DNA from: Xylaria sp. FL1777
Taxonomy: Eukaryota > Ascomycota > Sordariomycetes > Xylariales > Xylariaceae
Assembly: GCA_022578965.1 (NCBI GenBank)
Contig: MU400508.1
Location: 1-64,000, forward strand
Reading direction: 5' to 3'
Length of the DNA stretch: 64,000 nt
Shown piece by piece: positions 26,071-35,024 of this stretch. The notes beneath the pieces are model-generated. The model was not told the DNA's origin. It did not search any database and worked only from the letters and a program-made list of their open reading frames with translations. Both the position numbers and the translations under genes were made by a program. The number at the start of each line of letters is the position of its first letter. Position 1 is the first letter of the stretch.

Positions 26071-26459
26071 TATGCAGTTGGTTCTCTGCATGTATTTCAG
26101 CTACATAGGTACGGATGTCAGGCTTTGCCATTGTGTGTATGTATTGTAGTTGTAGATGAGATGGAGTGGACCTAGTGTCCTAATACTGTAGCTACTATAT
26201 ATACATAGCTAGGCCGTAGCTGCCTACAACGGAGTACGGATCGAGACTTTTGATTCAAGACTGGCTTCGGTCGAGCAGCTCTCATAATGCGACAGGCAAA
26301 CCTCGGCTGAAGGACGTCTCATCATGCGCTCGTATTCTGGCCATCGTATTTTACCCATGATACGTGATTGATTTGCCCGTGTCAGAATACCTTCATTTAT
26401 TACGCAACTGTTGATGTGAATACACGAGCCTGAAGCCCGAAAGCCGCTAGGATTTCACA
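26071..26459. promoter_or_regulatory. Upstream region of the HET gene
   Basis: 389 bp between inverted-repeat element B and the HET start. It holds alternating TACATA/TATATACATAG stretches around 26095-26210. No gene is seen. Confidence 0.35.
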
Positions 26460-28093
26460 ATGCGCTTCCTTCATTCCGTTGACCTTACTTTTAGTACCTT
26501 TGTTGATGATAGGGATATGCCCAAATATGCCATTCTCTCTCACACTTGGGGGCAGGACGAGGTAACTTATAAAGACATGAAGAAGCGTCCTGACGATGCT
26601 GCCAAGAAGCAGGGTTATCAGAAGATTAAAGCATGCGCTCAGAGAGCACGCGAAGATGGCCTTGAGTATTTTTGGGTTGACACCTGTTGCATTGATAAAT
26701 CCAGTAGCGCGGAGCTTTCAGAAGCGATTAATTCCATGTATCTGTTATATCGGAACTCTCAGGTCTGCTACGCTTTCTTGAATGACGTGTCAACACCGTC
26801 GACTCACACGGGCGATCGCACATGGAAATCTGAATTCCAATCTTCGCGATGGTTTACCCGTGGCTGGACGCTTCAGGAGCTAATTGCCCCTAAGTCATTG
26901 AAGTTCTATTCACACAGCTGGTCCTACGTTGGGACGAAAGTGGAGCTGGCTGTGGCCATTACGGAGAAAACTGGCATCCCGCAGGATGTCATCATATCCG
27001 GAGACTGCTCCAACTCATCGATCGCACAGCGAATGAGCTGGGCCGCGGGTCGACAGACATCCAGAAGAGAGGATGCAGCATATTGTCTGATGGGAATCTT
27101 TGACGTTAACATGTAATGTTCAAAGCCGATTAATACTTATCACTTCACACTACTAATAGCGTCATTAGGCCAATGCTTTACGGTGAAGGGAGTCGTGCGT
27201 TTCTGCGCCTACAGGAAGAGATCCTCACAAAATCTGACGATCTATCTATCTTTTCATGGGTGAGCCCCAGGATGGCGTTTTCAAGTTATCGAGGCCTCCT
27301 AGCCCGCGAGGTGTCTGAATTTGCAGAGTGTAGTGACATTAAGTGGGTAAGAGGCACGAACAACGACCCGTATCAAATCACGAACAAAGGGATACACAAC
27401 TCCCTACCACTCACTGCAAGAGTAGGGAGACCTGGTGAGTTTGTAGCCCTTCTTAGAGGGGTTTACAAGAAGCCAGACATGAAAATAGGGATATTTCTCC
27501 AGAGGGTGGGAAAAGAACAATACGGGCGCATCGAATCGGACCAATTGGCGTTGCCACAGTTCCATCTGCCCGAGGAGGAAACATCTCTGATTAAACTGTT
27601 TGTCCGTCAGAACGTTGTGATGGAAGAGGCAACCCACAATCGAGTTGCAGGCATATCACTCATCTTCGATAGCTCCGTTTTGGAGCTACTGAAGCCACCG
27701 CCAACAGCCTACTGGAATGAGGAGGCGAAATTTTTCGCATTCGAAGGGCCCATACAGTCCAAAAAGCCACCCGTCTTCATGTGCACACTCCGCAGCATTG
27801 GGACGCAGGGCGATGGAGTCACGATCACTGTTGATGCCGGCAACGAATGGGGCTCAGTATTGGGAATTGAAGAAGGATGGAATAAAGCGCCTGCTCTAAC
27901 ACCATTCATTCATAAGTTTCATTGTCGGAAGCCGAGGCACCCTGTTTTGGAAGTCAATCTCGAGCGAGGAATCTTTGATGGAGAAGCTCAACTGAAACTT
28001 GCGGTCAAGAGCTTGATAGTTGGGAATGGTCCTGGTATTCATGCTATAAGATCTAGGTTATTGGTGGGATCGTCTCGCTCTTGGCCTCACTGA
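26460..28093 (+). CDS. HET-domain heterokaryon incompatibility-type protein
   Basis: Exons 26460-27112 and 27169-28093 give 525 residues. The HET domain fills residues about 22-220: KYAILSHTWGQDEVTYKDM, EYFWVDTCCID, INSMYLLYRNSQVCYAFLND, RWFTRGWTLQELIAP and RREDAAYCLMGIFDVNMPML, then YGEGSRAFLRLQEEI, which is the usual end of this class. HET domains trigger cell death when non-self is sensed in fused hyphae. The C-terminal 300 residues have no recognised repeat or sensor domain. The intron splits the MGIFDVNM-PMLYGEG motif, a common position in this family. It lies between TE-like repeats and the NLR-type gene at 30261. Confidence 0.92.
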
Positions 28094-28331: not shown

Positions 28332-29595
28332 CTAGACCACATCCCCGGGAGCCAGACTCGAGATATCCGCACTTCTAACGGCCCCGTCGAAAATTATCTC
28401 ACTTACAATCTTCCCAGTTGATGGTGAGTTTTGTATTCCCCAGTTATCGTGACCAGTAGCTACGATAAGACCTGCGACTACGGTAGGACCTAGGAGCGGC
28501 CCTACGCCACGGTCTCTTCCCTCAATTGTCACAATAGGTCTATAAGCAGCCTGCGCAGCTATGAGCCTGCGGTTATGCAGAAGGCTAGACACATATTCGG
28601 CGGCGAGCCGAATCCGCGCGCAAACTTCCTCATCGACCTCGACTTGGTCGGAAGACGCCGGGAGGGGAGGCGCTTCAGCGTCTGTGCCAGCGGAGATGTA
28701 AACGGTGTTGTCAGGTCGTGGGTAGATCTTGACTCTGGGGAACCAAGAACCCGGAACCTTATTGTTGAAGGATACTAGCTCGGGAAGCGTCTCGGTGCTC
28801 GGAACTTCGAGAAGCAGTGTATTGTTTCTCGCACCCCCTATGGGAATCTTGGGGAGAACAGTCTTCGACCATGGACCTGCCGCCACAACAACGTAGTCTG
28901 CGAGCAACTCATTGACAATTTCGGAGCCCTTCGCTGTGTAGAGAACAGACTGGACGGCTTTCCCATCGTCAGAGTAATTAATCTTGGTAACAGAGCCAAA
29001 GATGATGGTCGCACCCTTAGCTTCCGCTTCCTGAGCCAATATCTTGGTGTACCAATAGGGATGAAGCTGAGCAGAGCCTTCTGGGCCGTTCCCTCGCAGA
29101 TTGCATGCTGTCACGCGGCCCGCGTCTACGAGCTTAGGCACTGGCTCTGTCGTTTGCACTTGAGTCTTGGATGATGGCGTTATAGTTGCTGGTGGATCTC
29201 TGCCAGGAGCATCGTCAAGGTCGATCTCGCAGTATACCGAGCGAACTCTGCGAAATCCGTAGCGATCAGCGCCGTTGTGCTCGGTAGCTAGCTCTGTGTG
29301 CAATTGCCAGCTCAACGTAGCGAGACAAGGAGGAGCGGCCCAACTTGCAACACTGGCATGTGCTTTACCAGAGGCGCCCCCGGCAATTTCAGTAGCTTCA
29401 AAAAGAGTGACCCGGTCTCTGCTACTGTCGTAGAGGGCATGTCGGGTTAAGAAGTAAGCAGTGGCACATCCAACAGCCCCTCCACCTAGGTATAGGAGCC
29501 ATTAGTCAAAAGAGTATGGTGATCAGGCGGCTGCTCGGCTGTGTCATCGACGCACCTATGACAACGATGCGCTTCGCCTTTCGATGTTCAGGCAT
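28332..29595 (-). CDS. FAD-dependent oxidoreductase (DAO family)
   Basis: Minus-strand exons 29595-29556 (40 bp) and 29485-28332 give 397 residues. The first exon ends inside the dinucleotide-binding motif, and splicing completes it as IVVIGGGAVGCATAYFL, a textbook GxGxxG FAD site with the downstream acidic residue in VTLFEATEIAGGASG. Further DAO landmarks are a substrate-side region with LHPYWYTKILAQEAEAKG, the DYVVVAAGPWS strand and the C-terminal TGHDNWGIQNSPSTGKIVSE that closes the FAD site. The family oxidises amino groups or similar C-N bonds; the substrate is not inferable. There is no targeting signal. It lies between the HET and NLR genes. Confidence 0.88.
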
Positions 29596-30260: not shown

Positions 30261-33200
30261 ATGTACAGTGTCGTAGCTGTTCCGGGAATCGGACTCGCGG
30301 CCAAGGACCCATGGAGTGACGGCGTAGTGAACTGGCTCAAGGATGACACGATGCTGCGTTATTGGCTTCCCAATGCTCGTATTATGCATGCTTCTTACGA
30401 TTGGGAAGGTTTCAGTCAAGACAGACCAATCCAGCACTTGCTCCCTCTGTTGGCAAGGGAGCTTGTGCGAGCATCTACGGCTAAGCGTCGCACATGTTTC
30501 AAGCGACCCCTTATCTTTATTGGGCATTCTCTAGGTGGGCTCATTGTCAAACAGGTGGGCTCGACTCGTGTTTTTTAGGGCCTCGCAGATCTATGACGGG
30601 CTGTACATTCAGAATCAACAACTGACGGGTCACTCAGACTGCTCTGCTTTCTGAACTTCCCCATGACGAGTACCAGCTACTGAGGAAGTCGCTTGTTGGC
30701 ATCGCTTTGTTTGGAACTCCCCATAGAGCTACATCATTGAAATCCTCGGAGGCCGTCAGTCTTGGCACTTCTCTTGACGATCCACGATCAGTAGTACAGA
30801 AAGAACCCTCCTCGTTTGCCACCTTATCCTGGGACTTTGCTCGTGTTGCAATCGTTCACCATATCCCAGTGTGCTGTTTTTTCGAACAACCTGTAAAAGG
30901 TAAAGCTTTGGTGGATGAGCAATTCAGTACAATTCCCGGCTTCAAGAACACAGCCCTCACTACAGATCACCTCCATCTCTGCAAGTATGCAGGACCCGAC
31001 GATTACAACTACAAGTTGGTACGGGACGAACTCATTGCCTTCGTGCAGGGAAGTGCCGATTGTTTGGCCAGACGCAAGGACTGTGAGTGTGACCTGTGCT
31101 GCTATCATATGTACCTAAGTAACCGATCTGCCCTCGTTAGTCTCTGCCGATAAGGTAAATGCATCCCTCAGCGCTCTATTAGGGACAGACCTTTCAGATG
31201 ATGTAGACATGATCGAGCACAACAAAGGTCCGCTGCTGCAAGGATCCGGTTCCTGGCTGCAGGCCGACCCAAACTTTAACGAATGGCTTACTTGCAAGAA
31301 GGGCCGTGTGTTCTTGCTCCACGGGAACCATGGAAAAGGGAAGACAATGCTCTCACTTTCGGTTCTTAAGGACATCACCGAAGAAATCAAGGCTAACGGT
31401 TCGGGCCCTAGTGTTCTCGTAGCCCATTTTTTCTGCGACAATAAGGATAACGGACGCAACAGCTTGGTCGCTGTCCTACGCAGCTTAGTGTATCAGCTTC
31501 TTCAGAGCCGTCCAGACCTGCCTGCTTACTTCAAGGGTTTGTTGAACAGCGAAGGAGAGCAGCTACTCAGGTCACCTACTGCTCTGCCTTCACTTTGGCG
31601 CATTCTGAGAGACTTGTTTGCCAATCCCTGTGTACATCGAGTCTACATCATCATTGACGGTCTTGATGAGTTAGACGAAGAGTCTATTGGTGAGCTCTTG
31701 AAGTATTTGGATCCTTATCTCGACTCCGAGCAGCTTTGTGCGACGGATCAGCCGAGATCTGAGGTCAAATGGTTCCTTTCCAGCCGAAATATCCCCGCCA
31801 TTACTGAAATCCTGGAGCAAACACTCAGCGTCAGCCTGGAAGAGAATGCGAAACAAGTACGAAATGCAGTATCAGACTTCATCGGCGCGCGGGTGGACGA
31901 CCTGAAGGAGGGAAAGGGTTACAACACAGGCCTTGCGAGTCTGGTTTCAAATACACTGGAGAAAATGTCCGAAGGCACTTTCCTTTACGTCTCAATGGCC
32001 TGCGGTGCACTAGCTAGACCTGACGTTCGCCTCTTTGACACCGATCAGATGTTGCAAACACTACCAAAGGGCCTGGGCCCTCTGTACGACCGGATCCTTC
32101 AGCAGACTCGCACAGGGCCAAAAAACCATGTGCAGTACACTACAAGGATCCTCAGAACGATGGTTCTTGCTCTGCGGCCTTTGAGCCTACAAGAGCTCGC
32201 GTTACTAGCGCAACTCCCGGAGGACCATCATTCTGATGAGAAGATGCTCCTTGAGTATACCGTTCTTTGTGGCTCCTTCATCACTGTGCGACAGAACACG
32301 GTGCATTTCGTCCACGAATCGGTAAAGGAATATCTTCTGTCAATTGACGATCTGTTTCCCCCTCCCTTTGGCGAGTATCAGGCGCAACTTGCAAGACTTT
32401 TCCTGAAGCTGCTTCTTGAGCCCAGCTCTTCAGGGGCCGGAGTGGACGAAGGAAAACTTGGGGTAGACGAAGCGAAGTCCATATTGGATTACCCACGCTT
32501 CTTCTGGGTTGATCATGCAAGACAAGCTGGATCTTTACTAGACTGGTCTCAATACCTGTCTACCCCTTTGTTGAGATCAAGTTCATCAGCCCAAAAACAA
32601 TGGCTCGACATCTACTGGAACCCCGTCAATGCCGACTGGCTGAAACGGCCGGAAGATTTCACCCCCCTCCACTTTGCCGCCTATGAAGGTATCAGCAGCT
32701 TGATAGGACAGCTGGTGGACCGTGGTGATGATATAAATGCAAAAGACTCCACAGGATATACTCCACTTATGTGGGCAGCAAGAAACGGCTTCGCGGACGC
32801 TGTAGAACAGCTTCTTAGCTTGAAAGCAGACCAGAAGCTCCGGACTTCCGGTGGCTTAACAGCAGTGTTTTTGGCTTCAATCAACGGCAACTATCGATCG
32901 TTGGAGAAGCTCGTTCGTGAAGGAGGACAAGTCAACATTCGTGACCAGTCGGGCTGCACGCCGGCTCACTATGCGGCAGTCAATGGACACCCGAAGGCAC
33001 TAGGTATCCTCCTCGACGCTGGAGCCGACATTGAGGCTATCTATTCAAGTCGAACACCACTACAAAGGGCATCATACAGCGGCGAGGTCTCTGTTGTCAA
33101 AGTATTGCTTGAGCACAAGGCAGATTCCAAAGTCCAAGATAAGGAAGGTCGCACGCTACTCCACCTGGCTGTTCGAAGCAACCAATTGGATATGCTAGAC

Positions 33201-35024
33201 TTTTGGCTCAACAACTCAAGCGACCTTGAGACGCAAGATCGTCAATCATGGACGCCTCTGATGCATGCAGCTTCATTCGGTAATAACAGAGCAGCTGTTC
33301 ATTTGATCAAGAACGGGGTAAACATTGAGGCAAAGACGAGAGAAGGCCACACGGCCTTGTCAATTGCGACATTAAATGGCCGAGTCGCCATCGTCAACTC
33401 TCTTCTAGATGCAGGTGCCGACCCTGAAGTCGGTTCCGATACAGACGAAACACCTTTGCAGCAGGCAGCGTGGCTTGGCAATGCCACCATGTGCCAACTT
33501 CTGCTCGAAGCTGGTGCGGATCCCAATGCTCAAACCAGCAGGATGTGGACACCACTGCATCAGGCGGCATCGAATGGCCATCAGATCGCTGCGAAGCTCC
33601 TCCTCCAATACGGAGCAGATCCGAACGCTGTTGACATGGATGATCATACTCCATCAGCACTTGCTCTGGAAAACAATCATATTGCCCTAGCGACCTATCT
33701 AAGGAATCGAGAGATTATTGGTGGCGGACAAGACCTGGACATTCCAATTCGCACCACGCAGCGTGATCCACTAGACCGAGCCCTGTGTGAATTGTTGAAG
33801 ATTTCTCCCGAGTGCGGGTATGAAGAGCTTCACGGAAACGAAGGGTTTTCGAGACCGTCAAAGGTCACTGCTCTTGTCAATGGCAAAGCTATTCACTATT
33901 TCGTCAAGTCAGGGCCAAATGAAGACATGTTCGCATGTGAGTATGATAGTTACAGCTACCTTCCAGAACCTTCCTTGCTAATAAGTTGTCTTCGCAACCA
34001 CAGCCGAGCATGAGGCTCTACGCGAGCTTGGTGAGACTGTGCCGAACCTTACGCCCTATAGTCTCGGTTTTGGCAAATATACCAACAATAACTCGAGATA
34101 CTTCCTGTTGATGGAGTGGTTGGAAATGCTTGGTAGTAATTCCACCACAGCAGAGGATAGTCACGCACTTTCGCTACCACAGAAATTGGCCAAGCTTCAC
34201 AGCACTCCGGCCCGCACACCGCCCGGCTATCGTGACCCCCAATTCGGCTGGCACCGTTCCACCTACTGCGGAATGACCAAACAGAACAACACTTTTCGCG
34301 CCTCCTGGGACAAGTTCTATAGAGAGAACAGACTACTTACGGTCTTGCGTCAAATAGAGGACAGACACGGATCTAACGAGGAACTCAGAGCTGCAATGAA
34401 GCCGATTACCGACATAGTTGTGCCCCGCTTGCTGAGAAACGGTCATCTGGGCGGCAGGCGTGGGATCCAGCCAGTGCTGATTCACGGGGACCTCTGGCAC
34501 GGGAACAAAGCATACGGCGCCAACCCGGCTTGGGAGAACCCAGAGTGGGTTCTGTTCGATCCGAGCTCAGTATGTGCACACTGGAGTCATTTCTTTCCCT
34601 TTCTAGTAACCTGAGGACTCCGAACATGTCTCGGGAGCATGCATCAGGGGCATGATATTCACCCAAAGGAGTAATTACTGACTCCAGCGAGCATAGTGCT
34701 ACTGTCACTCCGAATATGAGCTCGGCATCATGCGATGTTTCGGCGGCTTCTCCGCCACCTTCTACCACGAGTATCATCAATTGCTTCCCAGGACTGAGCC
34801 GAAGCATGAATACGAAGATCGCATTGCCCTTTACCAGCTGTAAGTATCTTGACACAATAGCCACCGGCGCGGATTGTTTATCCCCATAGAGCGTTGCGCT
34901 AATCGCCGTCCTTAGATATCATTATCTTAATCATCACCTTATGTTCCGAGGAGGAGCATACATGGACTCGGCTATGGATATCGTCAAAAGGTTGATAGAT
35001 AAATATGTTGCTTCTGAGGACTGA
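30261..35024 (+). CDS. NLR-type protein: alpha/beta-hydrolase, NACHT, ankyrin repeats, fructosamine-kinase domain
   Basis: Exons 30261-30554, 30638-31082, 31141-33936, 34004-34569, 34697-34839 and 34916-35024 join in phase to 1450 residues. Residues 1-230 form an alpha/beta hydrolase: VVAVPGIGLAAKDPW, the nucleophile elbow IGHSLGGLIVKQ (Ser90) and TTDHLHLCKY with a likely catalytic His209. The NACHT NTPase has P-loop HGNHGKGKTM (308-315) and Walker B IIIDGLDELDEES (Asp419). About ten ankyrin repeats span roughly 750-1096 (for example FTPLHFAAYEG, TPLMWAARNG, TPAHYAAVNGH, TPLHQAASNGH). The same uninterrupted exon then continues into a fructosamine kinase domain from about 1122 to the end: IHYFVKSG, ASEHEALRELGETVP, YFLLMEWLEM, the catalytic HGDLWHGN (1339-1346), VLFDPSS and CHSEYELGIMRCFGGF. 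Hydrolase-NACHT-ankyrin is a known fungal NLR plan; the kinase tail is unusual. Confidence 0.9.

What the first reader, a model, noticed from the sequence alone, without database searches (positions are those of the whole stretch)
30261..35024. NLR-type protein carrying a C-terminal fructosamine-kinase domain
The sequence shows one long exon (31141-33936) holding NACHT, ankyrin repeats and the first part of a kinase (IHYFVKSG). In-phase splicing then leads to the diagnostic HGDLWHGN and VLFDPSS motifs. Hydrolase-NACHT-ankyrin is an established fungal NLR plan. A fructosamine/ketosamine kinase at the sensor end is one I do not know as described. It might be an integrated decoy watching glycation or phosphotransfer, a second effector, or a regulator of the hydrolase. 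Kinase residues look intact (Lys in YFVKSG, Asp1341), as do Ser90 and His209 of the hydrolase and the P-loop Lys.
Basis: partly seen in the sequence, partly recalled or inferred. Interest (0 to 1): 0.9.

Follow-up and report, generated by a model that had tools for sequence, protein, structure and literature searches.

The report
Fungal immune receptor with deglycation kinase
A fungal genome carries a predicted gene that joins an immune-receptor-type protein to a sugar-damage-repair kinase with an intact-looking active site; relatives with receptor and kinase joined occur in six fungal classes, and the kinase likely serves as the receptor's sensor, a combination we did not find described in the papers we could search.

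Summary
Window 30261-35024 (+) gives a 1450-residue spliced model: hydrolase-like, NACHT (NPHP3_N, 2.2e-30), ankyrin, fructosamine kinase (PF03881, 2.8e-57). Ankyrin repeats and the kinase N-lobe share one unbroken frame. Kinase introns 3 and 5 match those of this genome's housekeeping FN3K gene (read by eye).

It is not a one-off: 12 of 14 database hits of receptor length carry NPHP3_N, ankyrin and PF03881, six fungal classes among the six names looked up. Eleven of these, the window and seven exon-3 frames form one NACHT clade (100/99); Alternaria is a separate fusion (AU p 0.0002). The kinase is the best conserved domain; 10 of 12 relatives keep the catalytic Asp.

New lead: 4 of 8 FN3K loci (fusion included) lie within 5 kb of a NACHT, against 0 of 44 APH and 0 of 91 P450 loci.

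Best reading: an FN3K-NLR class whose kinase is a likely active sensor. Mechanism untested. In the closest relative seen, the kinase is annotated alone.

The parts
30261..31078 (+). Exons 1-2: alpha/beta-hydrolase-like (SesB-type) N-terminal domain, residues 1-245, interrupted by intron 1 (30555-30637); Ser90 codon 30528-30530, His209 codon 30968-30970
   Evidence: Abhydrolase_6 5.3e-4 (below cut-off) for the window; orthologue P0004 DUF676 1.9e-5, above cut-off; GHSLGG motif and invariant His209, 37 invariant columns over the window and 5 relatives; coordinates
30555..30637 (+). Intron 1 (83 bases)
   Evidence: in-frame GT..AG choice, one of three found
31083..31140 (+). Intron 2 (58 bases)
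   Evidence: in-frame GTGAGT..TTAG choice, one of four found
31141..33936 (+). Exon 3: NACHT, winged-helix-like region, ankyrin repeats and the kinase N-lobe in one frame
   Evidence: 964-codon open frame 31119-34013
31242..31787 (+). NACHT/NPHP3_N NTPase domain, residues 281-462; P-loop GNHGKGKT, Walker B IIIDGLDE
   Evidence: PF24883 E 2.2e-30; same coordinates in six-frame search
32148..32342 (+). Winged-helix-like region, residues 583-647
   Evidence: GPIID_WHD 1.7e-4, below cut-off
32619..33701 (+). Ankyrin repeats, about residues 740-1100
   Evidence: Ank_2 6.4e-69; no tandem array at DNA level
33702..33776 (+). Linker between ankyrin and kinase, residues 1101-1125
   Evidence: low-confidence segment at the matching place of the ANK-FN3K model of P0019
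33777..35000 (+). Fructosamine kinase (FN3K) domain, residues 1126-1443, over exons 3-6; Lys1169 codon 33906-33908, HGDLWHGN 34483-34506, FDPSS 34555-34569
   Evidence: PF03881 E 2.8e-57; PDB sequence match 6oid 1.3e-27; model of the 94% identical P0015 matches FN3K structures at ranks 1-12
33937..34003 (+). Intron 3, phase 1, inside the kinase; same place and phase as an intron of the housekeeping FN3K gene
   Evidence: comparison read by eye from the sequence
34570..34696 (+). Intron 4 (127 bases); apparently not shared: P0016, P0017 and the housekeeping gene show no break here
34840..34915 (+). Intron 5, phase 2, inside the kinase; same place and phase as an intron of the housekeeping FN3K gene
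   Evidence: comparison read by eye
34916..35024 (+). Exon 6 with the C-terminal kinase helices (LNHHLMF pocket residues) and stop

Best explanation
The window holds an NLR-type gene whose spliced product is predicted to join a hydrolase-like domain, a NACHT ATPase and ankyrin repeats to a fructosamine-3-kinase (FN3K) domain, and the kinase likely acts as the receptor's sensing end. Shown by sequence: the domain order, one unbroken frame from ankyrin into the kinase N-lobe, retained active-site residues, two intron places shared with the housekeeping FN3K gene, and matching groupings of receptor and kinase trees. Inferred: the fusion arose when a duplicated FN3K gene lost its own start and came under the receptor's reading frame. 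Inferred, untested mechanism: at rest the ankyrin part holds NACHT closed; when the tethered kinase engages its partner through its active site (a ketosamine-bearing molecule or protein, or an invader's factor that attacks FN3K), the change passes through the ankyrin repeats, NACHT oligomerises with ATP, and the clustered hydrolase-like domains kill or arrest the cell. FN3K genes beside other hydrolase-NACHT receptors would do the same in trans.
For: Domain order and significance and one frame across the junction. Kinase introns 3 and 5 match the housekeeping FN3K gene on contig C13 in place and phase (sequence, read by eye). NPHP3_N, ankyrin and PF03881 together in 12 of 14 hits of a search limited to proteins of receptor length: ten named (Cadophora, Zymoseptoria, Xylaria, Geoglossum, Lambiella, Chrysothrix, Neopestalotiopsis, Bacidia, Alternaria, Icmadophila), two unnamed; the first six were looked up and fall in six classes. 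7 of 7 further exon-3 frames run into the kinase N-lobe. NACHT clade of 19 rows at 100/99 support, with groupings matching the kinase tree. The kinase has the highest identity of the compared domains to each of the 12 relatives, domains with at most one aligned residue set aside: window to P0001/P0002/P0003 is 71/66/61% for FN3K, 54/44/32% for the hydrolase, 59/52/44% for NACHT, 55/54/46% for ankyrin. Active site over 12 fused relatives: Lys41, Gly152, Trp219, Asp234 and Phe252 equivalents 12 of 12, Asp217 10 of 12, Asn287 and His288 8 of 8 and Phe292 6 of 8 where covered; in human FN3K, D217N and D234N abolish activity and W219F nearly so (PMC11754801, passages). NLR-FN3K adjacency: FN3K 4 of 8 within 5 kb of a NACHT (fusion included), APH 0 of 44, P450 0 of 91 (Fisher p 4e-6, or 7e-5 without the fusion). 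The three neighbouring receptors fall in one clade of four NACHTs; all three have a DUF676 hydrolase match over its cut-off, C30's on a partial domain.
Against: No expression, activity or phenotype data. Two of 12 fused relatives lost the catalytic Asp (Alternaria P0012 has Asn, Icmadophila P0013 has Tyr), so catalysis is not essential everywhere, although P0013's model also has gaps. The hydrolase is not shown in every relative: P0006, P0009 and P0010 models start after it, P0012 has another N-terminus, and the nucleophile motif is missing from P0003 and P0013. The closest relative, X. arbuscula P0015 (94%), is annotated as a free kinase starting in the linker, and no X. arbuscula receptor half of 800 or more residues was among the 35 hits, so that half may be broken, split or absent there. 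Some kinases of the fused clade look truly unfused (P0020, P0023, P0038). Relatives in other classes (Cadophora, Zymoseptoria) are closer to the window than X. flabelliformis is, so transfer or paralogy, not plain descent, may lie behind the spread. Strong conservation of a kinase fits a ligand sensor, a guarded enzyme and a working effector about equally well. The three neighbouring FN3K-NLR pairs come from one receptor clade and are not three independent events.
Confidence: 0.45

Rival explanations
1. Integrated decoy or bait: the FN3K domain is carried only to be hit by a factor of a virus, bacterium or rival fungus that attacks the cell's real FN3K; its catalysis does not matter.
For: C-terminal integrated kinases are already proposed as decoys in fungal NLRs (PKinase C-terminal in 9 of 12 NLRs, PMC12258605 section 20). 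The fused kinase is a paralogue of a housekeeping enzyme. Two of 12 relatives lost the catalytic Asp.
Against: 10 of 12 keep the catalytic Asp and 12 of 12 keep the Lys41, Trp219 and Asp234 equivalents. The kinase is the slowest-changing domain of the receptor across fungal classes, unlike a bait in an arms race.
Confidence: 0.25
2. Second effector: activation clusters the kinases, which then phosphorylate sugars or glycated proteins as part of the response, while ankyrin repeats do the sensing.
For: Active-site residues kept in the window; flexible tether between ankyrin and kinase, pTM 0.64 with both domains well predicted in P0019.
Against: In the established plan the effector sits at the N-terminus (PMC9815663 passages) and a hydrolase-like domain is already there. 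The Alternaria fusion pairs FN3K with another N-terminal domain (PigL_N 1.3e-5, below cut-off), so FN3K follows the sensor end.
Confidence: 0.15
3. Two genes: receptor and kinase are separate neighbours and the fusion is a gene-model error.
For: X. arbuscula kinase annotated alone; P0011 in Psora suggests that models can be joined wrongly (ARM repeats plus FN3K, kinase outside the fused clade).
Against: No stop between ankyrin and kinase; the frame runs on into the kinase N-lobe in 7 of 7 further exon-3 frames; 12 annotated fusions in the databases; NACHT and kinase groupings agree.
Confidence: 0.05
4. The kinase is an ordinary deglycase that happens to be tethered; it repairs glycated proteins near the receptor or keeps the hydrolase or NACHT free of glycation and has no role in sensing.
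For: FN3K hallmarks kept.
Against: A likely housekeeping FN3K already exists in the genome (contig C13, groups with Rosellinia); tethering would not explain FN3K genes next to a second NLR clade.
Confidence: 0.1

Closest known systems
Fungal SesB-like/NACHT/ankyrin NLRs (PMC4986451, PMC9815663, PMC12258605; passages read)
   Same: Hydrolase-like N-terminus, NACHT with P-loop and Walker B, ankyrin repeats
   Different: An FN3K domain follows the ankyrin repeats; nucleophile is Ser in the window, P0001 and P0002 but Cys (GHCFGG) in P0004, P0005, P0007, P0008
Sordariales NLRs with C-terminal PKinase (CHK2/PRD-4-like), proposed integrated decoys (PMC12258605 section 20 read)
   Same: A kinase-fold paralogue of a free host kinase at the sensor end of an NLR
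   Different: Sugar/ketosamine kinase of the PF03881 family, not a Ser/Thr protein kinase; found in six classes, active site mostly intact
NLR gene beside a partner gene: Botrytis Bcvic1 (NACHT + ankyrin) with Bcvic2 (SNARE), A. fumigatus hetE locus (PMC11138114 passages)
   Same: A NACHT receptor gene next to the gene of a possible monitored partner, like the C28, C30 and C43 FN3K pairs here
   Different: Partner is FN3K, and in the window receptor and partner are fused
Housekeeping fungal FN3K (contig C13 copy, P0060 Rosellinia)
   Same: Motifs, two intron positions and phases; 45% identity to the window kinase
   Different: Free protein (P0060: 323 residues), outside the 41-row clade that holds the fused kinases (98)
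Human and Arabidopsis FN3K (9cxo, 6oid)
   Same: Foldseek ranks 1 and 2 for the 94% identical P0015 model; Lys41, Asp217, Trp219, Asp234 equivalents
   Different: Position of redox Cys24 (PMC11754801) is Gly; I25 is Phe and His291 is Met in the window, positions that also differ from human in the 21 fungal housekeeping enzymes compared

Membership tests
Fungal NLR (NACHT type) | NACHT/STAND NTPase with P-loop and Walker B | tested here: met
   PF24883 E 2.2e-30; PF05729 26.3 bits, 0.4 under cut-off; P-loop Lys and Walker B Asp conserved where covered
Fungal NLR (NACHT type) | C-terminal superstructure-forming repeats | tested here: met
   Ank_2 E 6.4e-69
Fungal NLR (NACHT type) | N-terminal effector domain of a known fungal class (SesB-like hydrolase) | tested here: inconclusive
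   Window below Pfam cut-offs; orthologue P0004 above DUF676 cut-off; Ser90 and His209 present, catalytic acid not assigned; PDB profile search best E 0.051
Fungal NLR (NACHT type) | Ligand-driven oligomerisation and cell death | not testable with these tools
   needs experiment
FN3K / PF03881 | Significant family match and PKL fold | tested here: met
   E 2.8e-57; model of P0015 (94% identical) pLDDT 93, top 12 Foldseek hits FN3K
FN3K / PF03881 | Lys41, Asp217, Trp219, Asp234 of human FN3K | tested here: met
   Window K1169, D1341, W1343, D1364; importance from PMC11754801 passages
FN3K / PF03881 | Phosphorylates fructosamines or ribulosamines | not testable with these tools
   Residue 244 equivalent is Tyr, the residue tied to a ribulosamine-only preference in an ancestral enzyme, but F244Y alone did not change human FN3K (PMC13223202 passages)
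NLR with integrated decoy | Extra domain is a paralogue of a free host protein | tested here: met
   FN3K on C13
NLR with integrated decoy | Free host protein is a target of invader factors | not testable with these tools
   no data found
NLRs with highly alike, hypervariable repeats | Tandem repeats nearly identical at DNA level | tested here: not met
   only a 25-base, 1.9-copy match in 32600-33850

The most novel reading that the evidence does not exclude
FN3K-NLRs are a class of fungal immune receptor that reads protein or metabolite glycation: a live ketosamine kinase, fused to NACHT-ankyrin receptors or encoded beside NACHT-WD40 receptors, senses Amadori-type sugar adducts (its own cell's stress, or a rival's or symbiont's glycated molecules) or guards the deglycation pathway, and triggers regulated cell death.
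Probability: 0.2. Interest if true: 0.88.

Novelty: new variant of a known kind. Interest (0 to 1): 0.64.

Why it matters
If right, a deglycation enzyme is linked to innate immune receptors in fungi both by gene fusion and by gene neighbourhood, in two different receptor clades. That gives fungal NLRs, whose ligands are mostly unknown (my general knowledge), a named and assayable biochemical partner (ketosamines, ATP, FN3K inhibitors). It gives FN3Ks, whose regulated processes are called largely unknown (PMC11148063, start of abstract in the listing), a possible immune role. It also offers a clean test of whether an integrated enzyme in an NLR is a bait or a working sensor, because one catalytic Asp decides it, and natural variants with and without that Asp exist.

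Tried and rejected
Amadoriase neighbour: the FAD oxidoreductase beside the gene (28335-29501, -; DAO 5.7e-36) was considered as a fellow glycation enzyme, but has no PDB relative by sequence at E 0.001 or better, so I do not link it.

NACHT-WD40-FN3K fusion on contig C28: looked possible from frames, rejected because a stop, about 640 bases and a separate start (MATLAVDENVIK) lie between.

Independent origin of every fusion: rejected for the main clade (100/99); a separate origin is accepted for Alternaria P0012 (one clade with it rejected, p-AU 0.00018). P0012 is a long branch.

Psora P0011 (ARM plus FN3K): set aside as a probable joined gene model; its kinase lies outside the fused clade. 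P0014: no PF03881 in its listed domains, but its frame ends in the kinase N-lobe.

Label counts on the kinase tree do not show one origin by themselves: 'fused' needs 12 changes, because 24 of 41 rows in that clade are labelled unfused. Many of those are exon-length frames from metagenome sources; P0091 and P0095 seem to begin in ankyrin remnants (my reading), while P0020, P0023 and P0038 look truly unfused. The clean single clade is in the NACHT tree. Trees are quick searches; one search warns of long branches among this genome's own paralogues.

Adjacency count: within 10 kb the figures are FN3K 4 of 8, APH 1 of 44, P450 3 of 91. I used 44 of 45 APH rows (the dropped row is the window kinase itself). 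P450 rows were merged to 91 loci, and one search scored only 92 of 253 candidates, so they are a sample. NACHT rows were typed with some small neighbouring pieces left out and merged to 77 loci. The 40-row NACHT tree used 40 of those 77.

Paper searches: all 10 used, on PubMed Central open-licence papers only. Gaps: 'fructosamine-3-kinase' with NACHT was covered only by the capped list (10 of 174 shown) and perhaps not by the whole-word search; 'ribulosamine' with NACHT was not searched across the library, only inside three NLR surveys (occurrences). The one ketosamine/NLR paper found (PMC4195978, passages) lists HET-E-1 and ketosamine-3-kinase as separate families. Supplementary tables (such as S10 of PMC12258605, the list of non-canonical domains) could not be opened, so FN3K may be listed there.


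Full report
What is there. The gene model at 30261-35024 (+) has six exons and 1450 codons before the stop. Pfam finds NPHP3_N (NACHT) at residues 281-462, ankyrin repeats to about 1100, and Fructosamin_kin at 1159-1443 with E 2.8e-57; NACHT PF05729 and the winged helix are under their cut-offs. The N-terminal 245 residues are alpha/beta-hydrolase-like: weak in the window (5.3e-4), above cut-off in the orthologue P0004 (DUF676, 1.9e-5), with GHSLGG and a His209 invariant over six sequences. The ankyrin part and the kinase N-lobe share one unbroken frame.

Why the splicing is believable. The same genome has eight FN3K loci (nine rows, two of them this gene). The one on contig C13 groups with a Rosellinia FN3K (99) and is the likely housekeeping gene. 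Read by eye, its two introns fall where window introns 3 and 5 fall, in the same phase: before E-H-E (phase 1) and at LYxL|YHxLNH (phase 2). So the kinase part descends from an intron-bearing FN3K gene, and the junction with ankyrin lies inside exon 3 near residue 1110, where the free enzyme has its start.

How widespread. A search with the kinase region, limited by the tool to proteins of 0.55-1.75 times 1450 residues, gave 14 proteins; 12 carry NPHP3_N, ankyrin and PF03881, one has ARM repeats (P0011), one ends early (P0014). Ten of the 12 are named: Cadophora, Zymoseptoria brevis, Xylaria flabelliformis, Geoglossum simile, Lambiella insularis, Chrysothrix, Neopestalotiopsis, Bacidia gigantensis, Alternaria dauci and Icmadophila ericetorum. 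Six were looked up and belong to Leotiomycetes, Dothideomycetes, Sordariomycetes, Geoglossomycetes, Lecanoromycetes and Arthoniomycetes. The hydrolase region is covered in eight of the 12 (P0001-P0005, P0007, P0008, P0013); P0006, P0009 and P0010 models start after it and P0012 has another N-terminus. Seven more frames end inside the kinase N-lobe as exon 3 does. In a careful tree of 34 NACHT regions these 19 rows (window, 11 fusions, 7 frames) form one clade at 100/99; Alternaria is outside, and holding it inside is rejected (p-AU 0.00018). Groupings agree with the kinase tree. One old fusion plus at least one separate one is the simplest account. The tree does not follow species: Cadophora and Zymoseptoria are nearer the window than X. 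flabelliformis is, so transfer or old paralogues are likely. The closest full receptors without PF03881, Pseudogymnoascus and Fusarium, are at 28-29% identity; that search scored only the 7993 candidates sharing most words.

Is the kinase alive. By domain, the window is 71/66/61% identical to P0001/P0002/P0003 in FN3K and 54/44/32% in the hydrolase, 59/52/44% in NACHT, 55/54/46% in ankyrin. Of residues that matter in human FN3K (PMC11754801, PMC13223202; passages), Lys41, Gly152, Trp219, Asp234 and Phe252 equivalents are kept in 12 of 12 fused relatives, Asp217 in 10 of 12, Asn287 and His288 in 8 of 8 and Phe292 in 6 of 8 where covered; I25 is Phe in 12 of 12, Cys151 is Val in 3 of 12, and His291 is not His, as in the fungal housekeeping enzymes. 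Residue 244 is Tyr in the window and 7 of 12 fused relatives, but that residue alone does not decide specificity in the human enzyme. The 94% identical X. arbuscula kinase folds with pLDDT 93 and matches FN3K structures at ranks 1-12. In an ankyrin-FN3K relative (P0019) both domains are well predicted, the linker is not, pTM 0.64: a tethered kinase.

A second link. The seven other FN3K loci were read with 9-kb stretches. Three lie beside hydrolase-NACHT-WD40 receptors: C28 in tandem, C43 and C30 head to head. Counting the fusion, 4 of 8 FN3K loci lie within 5 kb of one of 77 NACHT loci, whose 5-kb surroundings make up 1.4% of the genome; APH 0 of 44, P450 0 of 91 (Fisher 4e-6, without the fusion 7e-5). 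These three receptors sit in one clade of four among 40 NACHTs (100, quick tree), at about 35% identity to each other; the fourth (C55) has no FN3K nearby. Their kinases belong to another FN3K subfamily than the fused one (99; long branches), with HGD and the second Asp (FDPSS, YDSSA, FDATC) present. So FN3K and hydrolase-NACHT receptors are linked twice, in cis and in trans. The trans pairs are not independent of each other. Receptor genes paired with a partner gene are known (Bcvic1/Bcvic2 and the hetE locus, PMC11138114 passages).

How it may work. In the accepted plan the C-terminal part senses and the N-terminal part acts (PMC12258605, PMC9815663; passages). I place FN3K at the sensing end and think it is a working enzyme or ligand-binding sensor rather than a bait, because active site and sequence are held more tightly than any other domain. 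Whether the trigger is a ketosamine, a glycated protein or an attack on FN3K is open. All of this paragraph beyond the plan itself is inference.

Against. X. arbuscula P0015 is annotated as a free kinase that begins at a Met inside the linker, and no X. arbuscula receptor half of 800 or more residues appeared. Two of 12 fused relatives lost the catalytic Asp. The hydrolase is weakly recognised and not seen in every relative. Nothing is shown experimentally.

Known or not. No paper held both NACHT and 'fructosamine kinase'; three held NACHT and 'fructosamine', on flavonoids and epilepsy by their titles. Three fungal NLR surveys have no occurrence of fructosamin-, ribulosamine, ketosamine or FN3K in the main text. 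PMC12258605 reports 185 non-canonical domains in 8% of Sordariales NLRs and C-terminal protein kinases as putative decoys (section 20 read); its table S10 could not be opened. PMC6652019 notes an expanded fructosamine kinase family (7 members, 3 induced in coculture) and 156 ankyrin proteins in Cladonia grayi, with no link between them in the passages seen. The sequences of relatives are public, so the family is new as a described class, as far as these searches reach, not as data: a new variant of a known kind.

Noticed in passing
window 26451-27113 (+): HET-domain frame (PF06985, 4.8e-17) about 3.1 kb upstream of the NLR start; the next frame, 27134-28090, has no Pfam match. Two non-self-recognition type genes close together.
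   Followed up: no
window 28335-29501 (-): FAD-dependent oxidoreductase (DAO, 5.7e-36) divergent from the NLR; no PDB relative at 0.001.
   Followed up: partly
L011, L012, L013: FN3K genes next to hydrolase-NACHT-WD40 receptor genes, in tandem once and head to head twice.
   Followed up: yes
P0004, P0005, P0007, P0008 N-termini: Nucleophile elbow reads GHCFGG: a Cys in place of the Ser found in the window, P0001 and P0002.
   Followed up: no
L015 7134-7718: FN3K paralogue on C10 has HSNLWPGN, so the catalytic Asp is lost: a possible pseudokinase.
   Followed up: no
P0023 (Geoglossum umbratile): Kinase of the fused clade with about 70 extra N-terminal residues that match no Pfam family at E 0.5.
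   Followed up: no
P0015 (Xylaria arbuscula): 94% identical kinase annotated alone, starting at a Met inside the ankyrin-kinase linker; the receptor half may be broken, split or absent there.
   Followed up: partly
P0001 (Cadophora), P0002 (Zymoseptoria), P0003 (Xylaria flabelliformis): Relatives from other classes are nearer to the window protein than a Xylaria species is (71 and 66% against 61% in the kinase), which hints at gene transfer or old paralogues.
   Followed up: no
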